NCBI GenBank assembly: GCA_013214705.1
Contig: JABSRZ010000003.1
Span: forward strand, 62,001 to 126,000
From: Hyphomicrobiales bacterium
Lineage (GTDB): Bacteria > Pseudomonadota > Alphaproteobacteria > Rhizobiales > OSC116
DNA: 64,000 nucleotides
Direction: 5' to 3'
Positions 31,705 through 36,344 of this stretch are shown one piece after another. A program made the translations under genes and the position numbers. The notes under the pieces were generated by a model, which saw only the letters and a list, made by a program, of their open reading frames with translations, did not search any database and was not told where the DNA came from. The first letter of the stretch is position 1; the number at the start of each line of letters is the position of its first letter.

Positions 31705-31751
31705 AATTTGTGTTAATCTGCGCCCTATAAATGATTCAAAAGGAGGAGAAT

Positions 31752-32513
31752 ATGATAGATCTGCTAAAAATAATTATACGTTTGTCTGCCTTTTTTGGGC
31801 TTATATTAAGTAGTACGGCCTACGCCGATGTGGCAACTGACCAAAGGGATGCACGGGAAATAGTTGCCGATACCATTGCCAGTGGGGCGACTTTGTTGCG
31901 TTTGGTTGGGCAGAATGAATTAACCGCGCTACCCAAACAAGTTGTTAATGCGAAACAGGTTTTGGTTTTGGAGTTATCGGAGAATAAATTAGGTGACATA
32001 TCTGCGCTAACTGGCCTCACCAGATTGGAATATTTAGTTTCTAATTTTACCGAAATTACCGATATATCAAGCTTAAGTGGGTTAACTGAGCTTAGATATT
32101 TGACGCTGCGTGAGGCTAGAATTGTCGACATCTCGGCGTTAAAAAACCTAACCAATTTAACCCAATTGCGGTTATATTCTAATGAAATAACTGACATTTC
32201 TGTTTTGGCTGGGCTAACCAAGCTCGAAGAATTGGACATTTCGTTCAACCAAATCACAGACATTTCGGTTTTGCAAAATCTACAAAATTTGAAAAAATTA
32301 CATATATCGCACATGCAAGTTGATAATTTGGACAGCATTGCCAAACTGCCGTTGCTAGAGGAGATTGATATTGGCTATAGCGGGTTTGAAAATTTGGCTG
32401 CTTTGCTAAATCTAAACAATCTGAAAACAATATTTATCGAAATGAGCCGGGTGAAAGACAAGCAAGTGGTCGATCAATTATATGCCAAGGGCGTGCGGAT
32501 TGTTTTTTATTAG
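31752..32513 (+). CDS. Exported leucine-rich repeat protein
   Basis: A 253-residue protein with an N-terminal signal peptide (hydrophobic IIIRLSAFFGLILSSTA, likely cleavage after AYA) followed by about seven leucine-rich repeats of 22 residues. The consensus ITDISxLxxLTxLxxLxLxx matches the internalin-like class. The repeats take nearly the whole mature protein, with no membrane anchor or enzymatic domain. The ATG at 31752 has an AGGAGG ribosome binding site, the strongest one I noticed in the window. It lies 77 bp after the NCS2 permease gene and converges on ychJ with a 4-bp overlap. Its role is unknown; a periplasmic or surface protein-binding function is the usual inference. Confidence 0.85.
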   Translation: MIDLLKIIIRLSAFFGLILSSTAYADVATDQRDAREIVADTIASGATLLRLVGQNELTALPKQVVNAKQVLVLELSENKLGDISALTGLTRLEYLVSNFTEITDISSLSGLTELRYLTLREARIVDISALKNLTNLTQLRLYSNEITDISVLAGLTKLEELDISFNQITDISVLQNLQNLKKLHISHMQVDNLDSIAKLPLLEEIDIGYSGFENLAALLNLNNLKTIFIEMSRVKDKQVVDQLYAKGVRIVFY

Positions 32514-32935
32514 GTTATGGACACATCGCCATCTAGATATTTCCAACTGCCATTAGTTTTAATGAAGTGACTGGTTTCGTGATGGGTGTGGATGGTTCCG
32601 AGGCTTTTATAGCTGACTTTAAATTCCACACTGGCTTCAGTATGTTTGCGCGTGCCGCCAGATTTAGCGATGATTTTTAGGCCTAAATATGTGGTGGTGC
32701 GGCAATTTTCGGCAATTTGCTCGGAGCTTAAAGCCGCTTTAGTCTCGTCAGCCTTTGTTTCATCGACACATGTTGCCAATAAATAGCCGACCTCGCCCAG
32801 AGCAAAAGCCGTGTAACGGCTGCGCATCAATGCCTCTGCAATTGGCGGCGTTTTACTGCCTGAAATATAGCGGCCGCAGCATTTTTGATAGGTTCGGGGC
32901 AAACCACATGGGCATGAACTAGCGTGTTTAGGCAT
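32510..32935 (-). CDS. ychJ: YchJ-family protein (SEC-C zinc motif)
   Basis: A 141-residue protein of the UPF0225/YchJ family. The N-terminal SEC-C-type zinc motif CPCGLPRTYQKCCG is followed by the family signature AEALMRSRYTAFALGEVGYLL and by a cystatin/NTF2-like beta domain ending HETSHFIKTNGSWKYLDGD. The molecular function is not established. It overlaps the start of its neighbour DUF1467 by 8 bp on the same strand and may be translated with it. Confidence 0.9.
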   Translation of the reverse strand: MPKHASSCPCGLPRTYQKCCGRYISGSKTPPIAEALMRSRYTAFALGEVGYLLATCVDETKADETKAALSSEQIAENCRTTTYLGLKIIAKSGGTRKHTEASVEFKVSYKSLGTIHTHHETSHFIKTNGSWKYLDGDVSIT

Positions 32936-33203
32936 AATCTTTAAAATCTGGCATAAACGGGTAATCGGCTAAAGTGAAGCCACTATACTCGATGACCCAA
33001 TAAATAAATGCCGTCACAATGGCCGCAACCAAGGTAACCCACATGAATTTGCGCCACAAATGAATGGTGTGCGGCGCGCCAGCTGGCGTGCCTTTGACAA
33101 TGTGGCCGGCTTCTTCTTGAGATTTCACCCCGATATTGGCCATGGCGACAAAACTGACCCACCAAATGACAAAAAACACTGCAATGACTGTAATTAGCGA
33201 CAT
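32928..33203 (-). CDS. DUF1467 family membrane protein
   Basis: A 91-residue inner-membrane protein with two membrane segments (about residues 4-22 and 53-73). The linker contains KSQEEAGHIVKGTPAGAP, the recognisable DUF1467 stretch. The family is essentially alphaproteobacterial and is usually found, as here, between methylmalonyl-CoA epimerase and proS. The function is unknown. It begins 1 bp after mce ends. Confidence 0.9.
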   Translation of the reverse strand: MSLITVIAVFFVIWWVSFVAMANIGVKSQEEAGHIVKGTPAGAPHTIHLWRKFMWVTLVAAIVTAFIYWVIEYSGFTLADYPFMPDFKDYA

Positions 33204-33609: not shown

Positions 33610-33685
33610 AAATATTCCAACTCATTGCGATTTGTGCGAGATTGTCCTATATTTATAACGGATTTACAAAGAGATAAATTAAAAA

Positions 33686-34714
33686 ATGATTTTTTTTAAA
33701 CGATTCGAACTGGCAACGACTGAAATTATCAACCAATTGTGGCAGAACGACTATTTAAACACGCCTGCGCGCAACGCCGCTATTGAAATTACATCGGCAC
33801 CACTGGCCATAAAAACATGGCTTGAACGGTTGTTATTGGCGTTTGCAATATTATTTTTAATCGCTGGCATAATGTTGTTTTTTGCGTTTAATTGGGCGGA
33901 TATATCGCATATGAATAAAATGATTGGCATATTGAGCTTGATTGGCTTGATGGCGGGGTTAAATTATTATCTGTTGCATTTGGGTAAAACATTTGCCGCC
34001 AATTTAATTTTGCTGGCCAATGCATTCGTTACCGGGGTGTTTATGGCGGTATATGGCCAAGCCTACCAAACTGGTGCAGATAGTTATACGCTGTTTTTAA
34101 CGTGGGCGATTATGATTTTGCCATGGGCGATTATGGCGCGATATTTGGCTTTATGGGTGATGTGGATATTGGTTTGCAACATAGCGATGTGGACCTGGTG
34201 GGAATTGGGCATTTATCCTGAATTTTTTGCGCCTCGGCATTTGCCAATATTTTTGGCGGTGTTTCATATGGCCATGTATGTCATCATGTTAATTGCGGTC
34301 AGCAAACGACAAAACTGGGCAGATAAAAAATGGATGAAACTGCTATTGTCTATCGGTATATTTGCGCCATTGAGCATCTATATTATGCAAGCCATCAACC
34401 AATATAAGTTTGAAAGTTTAGATGGCGGCTTTGCCATCAGTATGATTTTGCTGGTGATATCCTATATATTTGTACGGTGGATTAAAAAATCCTTATCTGA
34501 ATATAGTGTGGCATTCTTTTGCGCCATTGCCATTTTACTGCTGGCCATCACCAAAACAGTCGATGAATTTACCCCCGGCACCGAGTTTGAAATATTTGGC
34601 TTTTTAATCAACGCGTTGGCGGTTATTGCGCTGTTTTTCTATGCTTATAAATATTATCGAGAAGCCAGCCTGCATTTTGTGGTCAAAAAATCGCTGAAAA
34701 CGGAGGCCGAATGA
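33686..34714 (+). CDS. DUF2157-type multi-span membrane protein
   Basis: A 342-residue protein with a cytosolic N-terminal part of about 45 residues, then about nine to ten membrane helices starting at LLLAFAILFLIAGIMLFFAFNW. The segment order and the FAFNWADISHMNK turn fit the DUF2157 family. It is the first of three genes with 4-bp ATGA overlaps (DUF2157, DUF4401, GDYXXLXY), a known conserved trio of unknown function. The start at 33686 has no strong ribosome binding site (AGAGATAAAT region). Confidence 0.8.
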   Translation: MIFFKRFELATTEIINQLWQNDYLNTPARNAAIEITSAPLAIKTWLERLLLAFAILFLIAGIMLFFAFNWADISHMNKMIGILSLIGLMAGLNYYLLHLGKTFAANLILLANAFVTGVFMAVYGQAYQTGADSYTLFLTWAIMILPWAIMARYLALWVMWILVCNIAMWTWWELGIYPEFFAPRHLPIFLAVFHMAMYVIMLIAVSKRQNWADKKWMKLLLSIGIFAPLSIYIMQAINQYKFESLDGGFAISMILLVISYIFVRWIKKSLSEYSVAFFCAIAILLLAITKTVDEFTPGTEFEIFGFLINALAVIALFFYAYKYYREASLHFVVKKSLKTEAE

Positions 34715-35847
34715 TGCAGACCATTGAAGTTTTATCGCAATTGAAAAATGACAATTTACTGGACAATCAGTCGATTGAAGACATTAGCCAGATTGACAAT
34801 GATGTGATTGGCACTGGCGTATTTTTGAATATACTGCTTTCGCTCGGCGCGCTGGTTGCCACTTTATTTGTGCTGTCATTTGTTGCCACCATCGCTTGGT
34901 CGTTTTTTGACCAGAGTGAAGACATAATTTGGATTGGCACGGGTATAATTGCCGCCACATTGATTGGCGCGGGTTATATAATTCACTCGCCAAATAATCT
35001 ATTTAAATTGCGCTTGTCGAGTTTCTTTTTAGCCATTGGTAAATTGACTGCCATCGTGTTTATCATTGAACGGCTTGGCGCTTATATTGGCTATGATTGG
35101 TTATATGAAAATATTATGTTCATCGCCTTATTGGCCCTAATGCTGGCAATTATAAACCTATATTTAAGCCGGATGAAGTTAGAGGTGTTTCTATTGCTAT
35201 TCGGCTGTGTATTGGTGCTTAAATTTGTAATTTCAGATTTTGGCCAATCAATAAGCGGCGCAGAACTGCCGTTTATTGCCTATGCGGATAGCGAGTTTCT
35301 GATCAATTGTGGTTTGTGGATTTGGGCAATCTTATCGCTATTGGTGTTTAATCTGAATTATAAAAACCGCCTGCCGTTTTATGCCTTTATAGCGGCGCAA
35401 ATTATTTTGGGTTTATTCAATATAAATGTGTTTAACTTTGTGGTCGGGTTCAATTTAAACTTTGGCCTGCAAGTGGTGTTTAATTTGATTGTTTTGGCCC
35501 CCAGCATCTACCTGATATTGAACTTACAAAAGCCCAATGGCCAAGCCATTGATTGGCAATATTATGCCTTATTTGGGCTGTTATTTGTCGGTTGCTTGCT
35601 GCCGATTAGCAATTTATATATCATCTTATTTTGTTTTTTGTTCGGCTATACCCAGCGGGATGGCATAATATTGGCTTCGGCCTATATATTAACCCCGATA
35701 TTTGTTTACAACCTATATAGACGGTTAGACCTAACGCTCGATACGGCCTCGACAATCGCCATAATTATCGGCATTGGGTTTTTGGTTGCGTTTGGCATTG
35801 TGCGGTTTAGCCAGTTTAAACAGTCGAAACAGCGGAGACCAGGATGA
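34711..35847 (+). CDS. DUF4401-type multi-span membrane protein
   Basis: A 378-residue protein with a soluble start of about 40 residues (LSQLKNDNLLDNQSIEDI) and about ten membrane helices. Length, topology and position in the trio fit DUF4401. The start ATG overlaps the stop of the DUF2157 gene (ATGA) and its own stop overlaps the next start in the same way, so the three products are probably made in step and may form one complex. No catalytic motif is visible. Confidence 0.78.
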   Translation: MMQTIEVLSQLKNDNLLDNQSIEDISQIDNDVIGTGVFLNILLSLGALVATLFVLSFVATIAWSFFDQSEDIIWIGTGIIAATLIGAGYIIHSPNNLFKLRLSSFFLAIGKLTAIVFIIERLGAYIGYDWLYENIMFIALLALMLAIINLYLSRMKLEVFLLLFGCVLVLKFVISDFGQSISGAELPFIAYADSEFLINCGLWIWAILSLLVFNLNYKNRLPFYAFIAAQIILGLFNINVFNFVVGFNLNFGLQVVFNLIVLAPSIYLILNLQKPNGQAIDWQYYALFGLLFVGCLLPISNLYIILFCFLFGYTQRDGIILASAYILTPIFVYNLYRRLDLTLDTASTIAIIIGIGFLVAFGIVRFSQFKQSKQRRPG

Positions 35848-36344
35848 TGAAAAAACTTAATTTGGCTTTTGCGGCGCTGATTATTGTGGCGTTTATTTAC
35901 AGCATTTATGGTAAAGAGCAGGTCATCGCCACCGGAGATGTGGTCTATCTAAAACTAGAGCCGGTTGACCCGCTATCGCTTATGCAAGGCGATTATATGC
36001 GCCTTGGTTATGAGATTAGCAGTGATACCAGTGAGATTGAAACTATACCCAAAGGCAAAACTGGCTATTTGGTTTTGAATATAGGCGACAATAAAATAGC
36101 TAAATTTGCTAGGTTTGACGATGGCAGCCCGTTGACGGCTAAACAGATAAAATTTAAATATCAGCGGCCGGATGGTGGCATTGTCATTATGCCCAACAGC
36201 TTTTTGTTTCAGCAAGGTTTGGCTGAATTATATGCCCAAGCAGAATTTGGCATATTTAGAGTTACCGCCACTGAACATTTGTTGGTTGGTTTGGCTGATG
36301 GCGATTTAAACAAACTTAAAACGCCAACAGCGGCCACCAATTAA
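35844..36344 (+). CDS. GDYXXLXY-domain protein
   Basis: A 166-residue protein with one N-terminal membrane anchor or signal segment (LAFAALIIVAFIYSIYG) and a periplasmic domain with LEPVDPLSLMQGDYMRLGYEIS. The sequence GDYMRLGY exactly matches the motif that names the family. It is the third gene of the DUF2157-DUF4401-GDYXXLXY trio, and its end overlaps the end of rnj by 4 bp (convergent). Function unknown; an envelope role is inferred from topology. Confidence 0.9.
   Translation: MMKKLNLAFAALIIVAFIYSIYGKEQVIATGDVVYLKLEPVDPLSLMQGDYMRLGYEISSDTSEIETIPKGKTGYLVLNIGDNKIAKFARFDDGSPLTAKQIKFKYQRPDGGIVIMPNSFLFQQGLAELYAQAEFGIFRVTATEHLLVGLADGDLNKLKTPTAATN

What the first reader, a model, noticed from the sequence alone, without database searches (positions are those of the whole stretch)
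33686..36344. Translationally coupled DUF2157-DUF4401-GDYXXLXY trio in an otherwise conserved gene block
Three membrane or periplasmic proteins of unknown function are joined by ATGA overlaps on the plus strand, between mce and rnj, which all point the other way. The conserved GDYXXLXY motif, exported by an anchored protein, and two multi-span partners look like one envelope complex. This is the best candidate here for an uncharacterised system.
Basis: partly seen in the sequence, partly recalled or inferred. Interest (0 to 1): 0.55.

Follow-up and report, generated by a model that had tools for sequence, protein, structure and literature searches.

The report
Conserved three-gene membrane protein cassette
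Three tightly packed genes encode what is probably one unstudied bacterial inner-membrane complex, two related multi-span proteins plus one periplasmic protein, found as a fixed unit in several distant bacterial phyla but without a known function.

Summary
In detail: DUF2157 (33686-34714), DUF4401 (34711-35847) and GDYXXLXY (35844-36344) lie in one + strand run with two 4-nt ATGA overlaps, between mce and rnj. In 25 of 30 loci of the order rnj and mce adjoin; in the 4 same-genus loci the trio sits between them. The unit is widespread: 75 of 80 named loci from several phyla carry all three genes in this order; in the other 5 the DNA ends too early to tell. Neighbouring domains share one reading frame in 9 loci, once all three. 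In 299 genomes of the phylum 52 of 54 GDYXXLXY genes adjoin DUF2157, in two spacings: 38 pairs without a separate DUF4401 and 14 trios. New here: DUF2157 and DUF4401 look homologous in their N-terminal halves, and the pair's single large protein has a DUF2157-like N-terminus and, less surely, a DUF4401-like C-terminus. So the module is probably a two-subunit membrane core plus a periplasmic cap. The DUF2157 model (pLDDT 88.5) resembles EccD of type VII secretion best, but weakly and without sequence support. The GDYXXLXY model (pLDDT 91.6) has no PDB match. The activity stays unproven. An ordinary find, but a useful target.

The parts
33686..34714 (+). DUF2157 membrane protein, 342 aa, 10 predicted TM helices, N and C termini inside
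   Evidence: Pfam E 3.8e-20; AlphaFold2 pLDDT 88.5, pTM 0.83; positive-inside
33890..33895 (+). DUF2157 N69-W70, periplasmic end of TM1, 98-100% conserved in 60 sequences
34055..34081 (+). DUF2157 motif GQAYQTGAD, predicted periplasmic TM3-TM4 loop; G124, Q125, Q128, A131 invariant in 60 sequences
34711..35847 (+). DUF4401 membrane protein, 378 aa, about 10 TM by hydropathy; divergent member
   Evidence: (Pfam E 0.015, below cut-off); ATGA overlap with DUF2157
35716..35760 (+). DUF4401 C-terminal motif region; consensus YY..L...L.KS, here with R337, D344, A346 in place of Y, L, K
35844..36344 (+). GDYXXLXY protein, 166 aa, one N-terminal TM helix (2-30) and a beta domain, periplasmic by inference
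   Evidence: Pfam E 2.6e-27; AlphaFold2 pLDDT 91.6, pTM 0.83; ATGA overlap with DUF4401
35988..36011 (+). GDYMRLGY motif (residues 49-56)
36198..36218 (+). SFLFQQG motif (residues 119-125), consensus SFFFQEG
34702..34706 (+). GGAGG, putative ribosome-binding site of DUF4401
   Evidence: Sequence
35834..35837 (+). GGAG, putative ribosome-binding site of GDYXXLXY
   Evidence: Sequence
33610..33685 (.). 76-bp divergent intergenic region between mce (-) and the trio (+)

Best explanation
The cassette encodes one stand-alone inner-membrane complex. DUF2157 and DUF4401 are paralogous polytopic subunits (about 10 TM each) that pair as a heterodimeric core. The GDYXXLXY protein is a membrane-anchored periplasmic subunit that caps the periplasmic face of that core, where the most conserved DUF2157 residues (NW and GQxYQTGAD) lie. 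In the commoner two-gene form one larger protein, DUF2157-like at its N-terminus and apparently DUF4401-like at its C-terminus, replaces both core subunits, presumably as a homodimer. Most likely activity: holding or moving a lipid or other membrane-embedded envelope component at the periplasmic leaflet, with GDYXXLXY gating or delivering it. Shown here: gene order, overlaps, co-occurrence, shared reading frames, profile-level homology of the two core subunits' N-terminal halves, topology of the DUF2157 model. Inferred: the physical complex, the heterodimer and homodimer, the cap. Guessed: the lipid-like substrate (about 0.2 on its own). The confidence given is for the architecture of one complex.
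For: 75 of 80 named loci hold all three in the same order; in the other 5 the DNA ends within or just upstream of DUF4401. One-frame fusions in 5 of the 80 named loci (L086 all three; L101, L127 DUF4401-GDYXXLXY; L108, L119 DUF2157-DUF4401) and in 4 of the 18 loci (L041, L047, L053 DUF4401-GDYXXLXY; L051 DUF2157-DUF4401); their GDYXXLXY parts are 29-55% identical to each other except L101-L127 at 78%. 52 of 54 GDYXXLXY genes adjoin DUF2157 on one strand, in two clear spacings; DUF4401 over cut-off in 13 of 14 trio-spaced genomes and nowhere else. Profile comparison of halves: DUF2157-N to DUF4401-N 85%, E 6e-6; pair-N to DUF2157-N 98.9%, E 4e-17; pair-C to DUF4401-C 47%, E 2e-4, against 9% to DUF2157-C; nine comparisons of halves with NuoN, NuoM or EccD gave at most 0.6%. 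Pairwise distances correlate, r 0.93, 0.84, 0.81 over 83 loci. Conserved motifs on the periplasmic side of the model. No neighbour family recurs in more than 9 of 80 loci. A F. nucleatum GDYXXLXY protein was among the 16 proteins found with both FtsX and EnvC after formaldehyde crosslinking (PMC5915739, section 10), an envelope setting.
Against: No complex was modelled: only two folding jobs were allowed, and alignments for a natural triple fusion came out misaligned and were not folded. In 2 of 80 loci unrelated genes split the unit (L130, L134). In 2 of 80 (L099, L132) one or two of the genes lie in two reading frames without any N in the record, so those copies may be broken or misread. DUF2157 occurs without GDYXXLXY in 9 of 61 genomes. 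The window's DUF4401 lacks residues conserved in over 95% of relatives (K346, Y337). A non-matching pairing of halves, DUF2157-C with DUF4401-N, reached 23.5%, so the 47% for the pair-type C-terminus is only moderately above background; whole-length DUF2157 against DUF4401 gave 39-59%. The Nuo and NCS2 controls held 1-4 sequences each. The correlation of distances has no control gene set and would be expected of any genes inherited together. Nothing here shows a substrate.
Confidence: 0.7

Rival explanations
1. The trio is an envelope-stress sensor: GDYXXLXY senses a periplasmic signal and the multi-span partners pass it inward, in the manner of Psp/Lia modules, where LiaF's TM part has been called DUF2157.
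For: PMC11237479 (passage) assigns the N-terminal TM helices of LiaF to DUF2157; a F. nucleatum GDYXXLXY gene is listed with the value 1.93 in a coculture RNA-seq table (PMC9848294 passage).
Against: None of the adjacent window genes scanned is a Psp or Lia gene. No neighbour family recurs in more than 9 of 80 loci; a LysR-like family (8 loci, both sides and strands) and a sensor-like one (5 loci) are scattered (the clusters were not named by a family search). No kinase or DNA-binding domain in any of the three.
Confidence: 0.15
2. It is a cell-division or peptidoglycan-remodelling accessory complex working with FtsEX and EnvC-like amidase activators.
For: Co-purification of the F. nucleatum GDYXXLXY protein with FtsX and EnvC (PMC5915739 section 10).
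Against: Crosslinked pull-down with 16 shared proteins of mixed kinds; the family also rings in the control genome Methanosarcina acetivorans, an archaeon; no neighbour family is steady.
Confidence: 0.12
3. Co-transcription only: three unrelated envelope proteins kept together by operon inertia or joint transfer.
For: Patchy distribution (55 of 299 genomes of the phylum with GDYXXLXY at E up to 0.001), also on plasmids, chiefly of Pantoea.
Against: Order kept across phyla with 9 loci of shared reading frames and an alternative two-gene form.
Confidence: 0.08

Closest known systems
Pfam DUF2157 (PF09925), DUF4401 (PF14351), GDYXXLXY (PF14345)
   Same: All three proteins belong to these families by sequence (DUF4401 weakly); the families are uncharacterised.
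   Different: No function is attached to them in the papers found. The homology of DUF2157 with DUF4401 and the mixed nature of the pair-type protein were worked out here; I did not search for earlier statements of them beyond.
EccD, membrane core of type VII (ESX) secretion
   Same: The seven best structural matches of the DUF2157 model are ESX-3 and ESX-5 entries (Z 11.4-12.5, 284-295 residues, rmsd 7.2-9.6; the next, unrelated, Z 9.3), named EccD3 or EccD5. EccD pairs into a ring with lipid in its cavity, and EccB has one TM helix and a periplasmic part (PMC6986878, PMC8232910, passages).
   Different: Foldseek E 0.4-3.7, TM-score 0.31-0.42; no sequence signal; no match of the EccD family model in G000 or G001; no ubiquitin-like domain fits in the 37 residues before TM1.
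LiaF / Psp membrane partners
   Same: DUF2157 label used for the LiaF TM region in PMC11237479.
   Different: The window trio lacks adjacent PspA, LiaRS and the Toastrack domain described there.
DUF2339 membrane proteins
   Same: Weak Pfam hit in 2 of 60 DUF2157 members, best E 0.12.
   Different: Below any significance.

Membership tests
Pfam DUF2157 (PF09925) | Score over the curated cut-off (32.4 bits) | tested here: met
   72.5 bits, E 3.8e-20; 60 of 60 aligned members match at E up to 10, best 3.3e-35
Pfam GDYXXLXY (PF14345) | Score over the curated cut-off (27 bits) and the GDYxxLxY motif | tested here: met
   95.9 bits; GDYMRLGY at residues 49-56
Pfam DUF4401 (PF14351) | Score over the curated cut-off (30.4 bits) | tested here: not met
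   15.2 bits, E 0.015, but over 38-361 of 378 aa and 3-301 of 307 positions
Pfam DUF4401 (PF14351) | Homology with accepted members and same operon place | tested here: met
   57 of 57 aligned members match DUF4401 at E up to 10, best E 1.6e-66; a profile of trio members finds same-genus copies that were not in its seed (L021 E 9e-40, L023 E 5e-41). The window itself was in the seed, so its own score there is not independent.
Type VII secretion EccD | 11-TM EccD fold | tested here: inconclusive
   Best matches, Z 11.4-12.5, under the tool's guide of about 13 for helical proteins
Type VII secretion EccD | Sequence homology to EccD | tested here: not met
   DUF2157: hhalign 0.1%, E 0.69 and 0.1%, E 0.42; DUF4401 0.1%, E 0.45; pair-type 0.9%, E 0.058, a little above its controls at 0.1-0.2%; EccD not in the PDB sequence hits of the DUF2157 or DUF4401 profile to E 10
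Type VII secretion EccD | EccC ATPase and other ESX genes nearby | tested here: not met
   None among the adjacent window genes scanned; across 80 loci no family recurs in more than 9 (clusters not named)
Psp/Lia envelope-stress module | PspA/LiaH or LiaRS partner genes | tested here: not met
   None among the adjacent window genes scanned; as above. The rest of the genome was not searched for them.
Anti-phage defence system | Match to PADLOC models | tested here: not met
   0 of 3 proteins match at E up to 1

The most novel reading that the evidence does not exclude
DUF2157 and DUF4401 form an EccD-like ring outside any type VII secretion system: a heterodimer enclosing a lipid-filled membrane cavity, closed on the periplasmic side by GDYXXLXY in the place EccB takes in ESX. 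[quoted passage not shown]
Probability: 0.15. Interest if true: 0.75.

Novelty: new member of a known kind. Interest (0 to 1): 0.42.

Why it matters
A fixed three-gene membrane unit found across several phyla with no function in the papers searched is a good target for genetics. The two forms (pair and trio) and the natural fusions make the complex testable with small constructs. If the EccD likeness holds, it would give a simple model for a puzzling part of type VII secretion.

Tried and rejected

Signal-peptidase-like fold for GDYXXLXY (idea from the P.DP.SL..GDY motif, recalled): the fold search gave no credible row (664 matches with E up to 10, none at 0.001; best VIA Z 2.7). This neither shows nor excludes it.

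EccD membership: followed to sequence level and not supported. The EccD sets had 7 and 6 sequences and the controls 1-4 each, so the negative is of limited power. The identity of the matched PDB chains as EccD was checked.

A frameshift in the same-genus G003 copy of DUF4401 (L022, L059): a run of N lies at the break. Loss of K346 in the window's DUF4401 as decay: same-genus copies L021 and L023 share the change and read LTLDSAS, close to the pair-type GTLLDTA, so it looks like a lineage variant.

Homologues in solved structures by sequence: nothing credible for GDYXXLXY, DUF2157 or DUF4401 (the weak rows included a designed protein, Tektin-4, NuoJ, an MtN3/saliva protein, Orai and YejM). PHROGs: only partial weak hits to families of unknown function for two of the three. 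NCBIfam: one weak hit far below cut-off.

Mechanical start-codon offsets over 80 loci: a start lies at -4 in 33 of 72 DUF2157-DUF4401 and 31 of 77 DUF4401-GDYXXLXY junctions; most of the rest overlap or abut at other offsets, so the exact ATGA is common but not universal.
Full report
What is there. Three + strand ORFs of 342, 378 and 166 aa at 33686-34714, 34711-35847 and 35844-36344 are linked by two 4-nt ATGA overlaps. Pfam calls them DUF2157 (E 3.8e-20), DUF4401 (E 0.015, below cut-off but nearly full length) and GDYXXLXY (E 2.6e-27). A 76-bp gap separates the first from the divergent mce; the last meets rnj tail to tail.

Place in the genome. The window lies in G000:C23. A same-genus genome (G003) has a contig of the same length and with the same gene breaks as JADGDI010000044.1, titled Hyphomicrobiales bacterium isolate BB6, so the host is probably an uncultured alphaproteobacterium and the phylum Pseudomonadota (inference). 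Of 36 of 41 genomes with an mce match 30 loci were examined: rnj lies 6-187 bp upstream on the same strand in 25; in the 4 loci of the window's genus the trio lies between; in one no rnj was found within the flank. So the trio looks like a derived insertion into a conserved block. Two of the six genomes of the genus (G002, G004; 71 and 75% complete) show neither GDYXXLXY nor mce and say nothing.

Spread. In 61 relatives, GDYXXLXY was found in 21 and DUF2157 over cut-off in 23; in 20 of the 21 both are on one contig, in G031 on two contigs; the two DUF2157 genomes without GDYXXLXY (G012, G053) have DUF2157 at a contig end. DUF4401 was detected in only 2 of 61: the Pfam model misses the divergent copies, and most relatives with GDYXXLXY have a two-gene form. 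In 299 genomes of the phylum GDYXXLXY over cut-off occurs in 54, DUF2157 in 61, DUF4401 in 13. 52 of 54 GDYXXLXY genes adjoin DUF2157 on the same strand; the two others are G234 (near a contig end) and G124 (a partial hit). The distance between the two domains is bimodal: 669-957 bp in 38 genomes (pair) and 1590-1830 bp in 14 (trio). DUF4401 over cut-off is present in 13 of the 14 trio genomes, the missing one being the window's, and in no other. Five weaker DUF4401 hits below cut-off were in genomes without a trio spacing; one of them (G255) has a pair. DUF2157 without GDYXXLXY: 9 genomes, 8 of them with weaker DUF2157 scores (39-60 bits).

Across phyla. Their titles name Proteobacteria, Bacteroidota, Planctomycetota, Chloroflexota (Anaerolineales), Acidobacteria, Verrucomicrobiales, Fibrobacter, Myxococcales, Desulfovibrio and Campylobacteraceae (some phylum names are recalled from the genus or order). 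With profiles built here, 75 of 80 loci hold DUF2157, DUF4401 and GDYXXLXY in that order; in the other 5 the DNA ends within or just upstream of DUF4401. Because the loci were found by trio-type GDYXXLXY this does not measure how often that type stands alone elsewhere. The 75 include 2 with a gene cut by the contig end (L070, L111), 2 interrupted (L130, L134) and 3 with a gene in two frames (L059, by N; L099 and L132, unexplained). The family also rings in the control genome Methanosarcina acetivorans, so an outer membrane is probably not needed for it. On plasmids, 57 of 72,556 records match, 47 of them Pantoea.

Fusions and interruptions. Frames holding two or more of the domains: L086 (Vreelandella stevensii) all three; L101 and L127 (Neptunomonas), L041, L047, L053 DUF4401-GDYXXLXY; L108 (Rhodopirellula MAG), L119 (Pantoea brenneri), L051 DUF2157-DUF4401. 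Apart from the two Neptunomonas loci (78%), their GDYXXLXY parts are only 29-55% identical, so several independent events are likely. In L130 unrelated genes lie between DUF2157 and DUF4401, and in L134 one 384-codon ORF lies between DUF4401 and GDYXXLXY. No other gene family recurs beside the unit in more than 9 of 80 loci: the largest clusters are Vreelandella-group synteny, a LysR-like family in 8 loci on both sides and strands, and a sensor-like one in 5 (the 25 largest clusters seen).

Relation of the two large subunits. Profile comparison of halves: DUF2157-N with DUF4401-N 85% (E 6e-6), pair-type N with DUF2157-N 98.9% and with DUF4401-N 78%; pair-type C with DUF4401-C 47% (E 2e-4), with DUF2157-C 9%; DUF2157-C with DUF4401-C 2%. 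Of the non-matching pairings the highest was DUF2157-C with DUF4401-N at 23.5%, the others 6.1% or less. Nine comparisons of halves with NuoN, NuoM or EccD gave 0.6% or less (the Nuo controls there are C-halves only); whole-length controls with NuoN, NuoM, NuoL, NuoH and NCS2 gave 0.8% or less. So DUF2157 and DUF4401 look like paralogues that diverged in the C-terminal half, and the pair-type protein seems to combine both characters, the C-terminal part being the less certain. This suggests heterodimer in trios and homodimer in pairs (inference).

Structure. GDYXXLXY: pLDDT 91.6, pTM 0.83, one TM helix and a beta domain, no PDB match by Foldseek or VIA-align, no credible sequence relative in the PDB. 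DUF2157: pLDDT 88.5, pTM 0.83, two short N-terminal helices and 10 TM helices; K/R counts in loops agree with N-in, which puts NW and GQxYQTGAD, the most conserved residues, at the periplasmic face, the side where GDYXXLXY is expected. Best structural matches are EccD chains of ESX-3 and ESX-5: seven entries at Z 11.4-12.5 over 284-295 residues, rmsd 7.2-9.6, the next unrelated row at 9.3 (chains named EccD3 and EccD5); Foldseek E 0.4-3.7 and TM 0.31-0.42. The tool's own guide asks for about 13 in helical proteins, and sequence comparison gives no signal (the pair-type protein at 0.9%, E 0.058, is the nearest thing to one). It is a lead, not a finding. The papers (passages only) describe the EccD dimer as a ring round a lipid-bearing cavity and EccB as a partner with one TM helix and a periplasmic part, which is why the analogy is attractive.

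Literature. Full-text searches for DUF2157, DUF4401, GDYXXLXY (3 papers) and for COG4872, COG4929, COG4984, PF09925, PF14351, PF14345 (1 paper, PMC3879021, seen only in the listing; the COG numbers are recalled) gave no function for the trio. PMC11237479 (passage) applies DUF2157 to LiaF. PMC5915739 (section 10 read) lists a GDYXXLXY protein among 16 proteins found with both FtsX and EnvC after formaldehyde crosslinking. PMC9848294 (passage) lists one in an RNA-seq table. The library holds only open-licence papers.

Judgement. The new points are the two forms, the paralogy, the fusions and the EccD lead.

Noticed in passing
31731-32513: Leucine-rich-repeat protein with an N-terminal hydrophobic stretch (LRR_4 E 1.3e-28), 260 aa, beside the block; two of three same-genus loci hold an ORF of similar size at that place (not compared).
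   Followed up: no
32928-33203: DUF1467 protein, small two-TM protein of unknown function found near mce in 26 of 30 loci.
   Followed up: partly
34711-35847: The genus-level DUF4401 lacks residues conserved in over 90% of relatives (K346, Y337, G301) and reads LTLDTAS, nearer the pair-type motif.
   Followed up: partly
L086:2982-5495: Vreelandella stevensii carries all three domains in a single 838-codon frame, a natural single-chain version of the complex.
   Followed up: partly
L099:2979-4962: In Halomonas olivaria TYRC17 both DUF2157 and DUF4401 lie in two reading frames each with no N in the record: perhaps decayed, perhaps sequencing errors.
   Followed up: no
L134:2316-3467: A 384-codon ORF sits between DUF4401 and GDYXXLXY in Candidatus Halobeggiatoa; not identified.
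   Followed up: no
L130:1242-3892: Billgrantia bachuensis has a LysR-like and other ORFs between DUF2157 and DUF4401, a rare split of the unit (read from the N-termini, no family search).
   Followed up: no
L172:537-866: In Mycolicibacterium arabiense the YukD-like protein and EccD are annotated as separate neighbouring genes, unlike the longer EccD of the other plasmids fetched.
   Followed up: no
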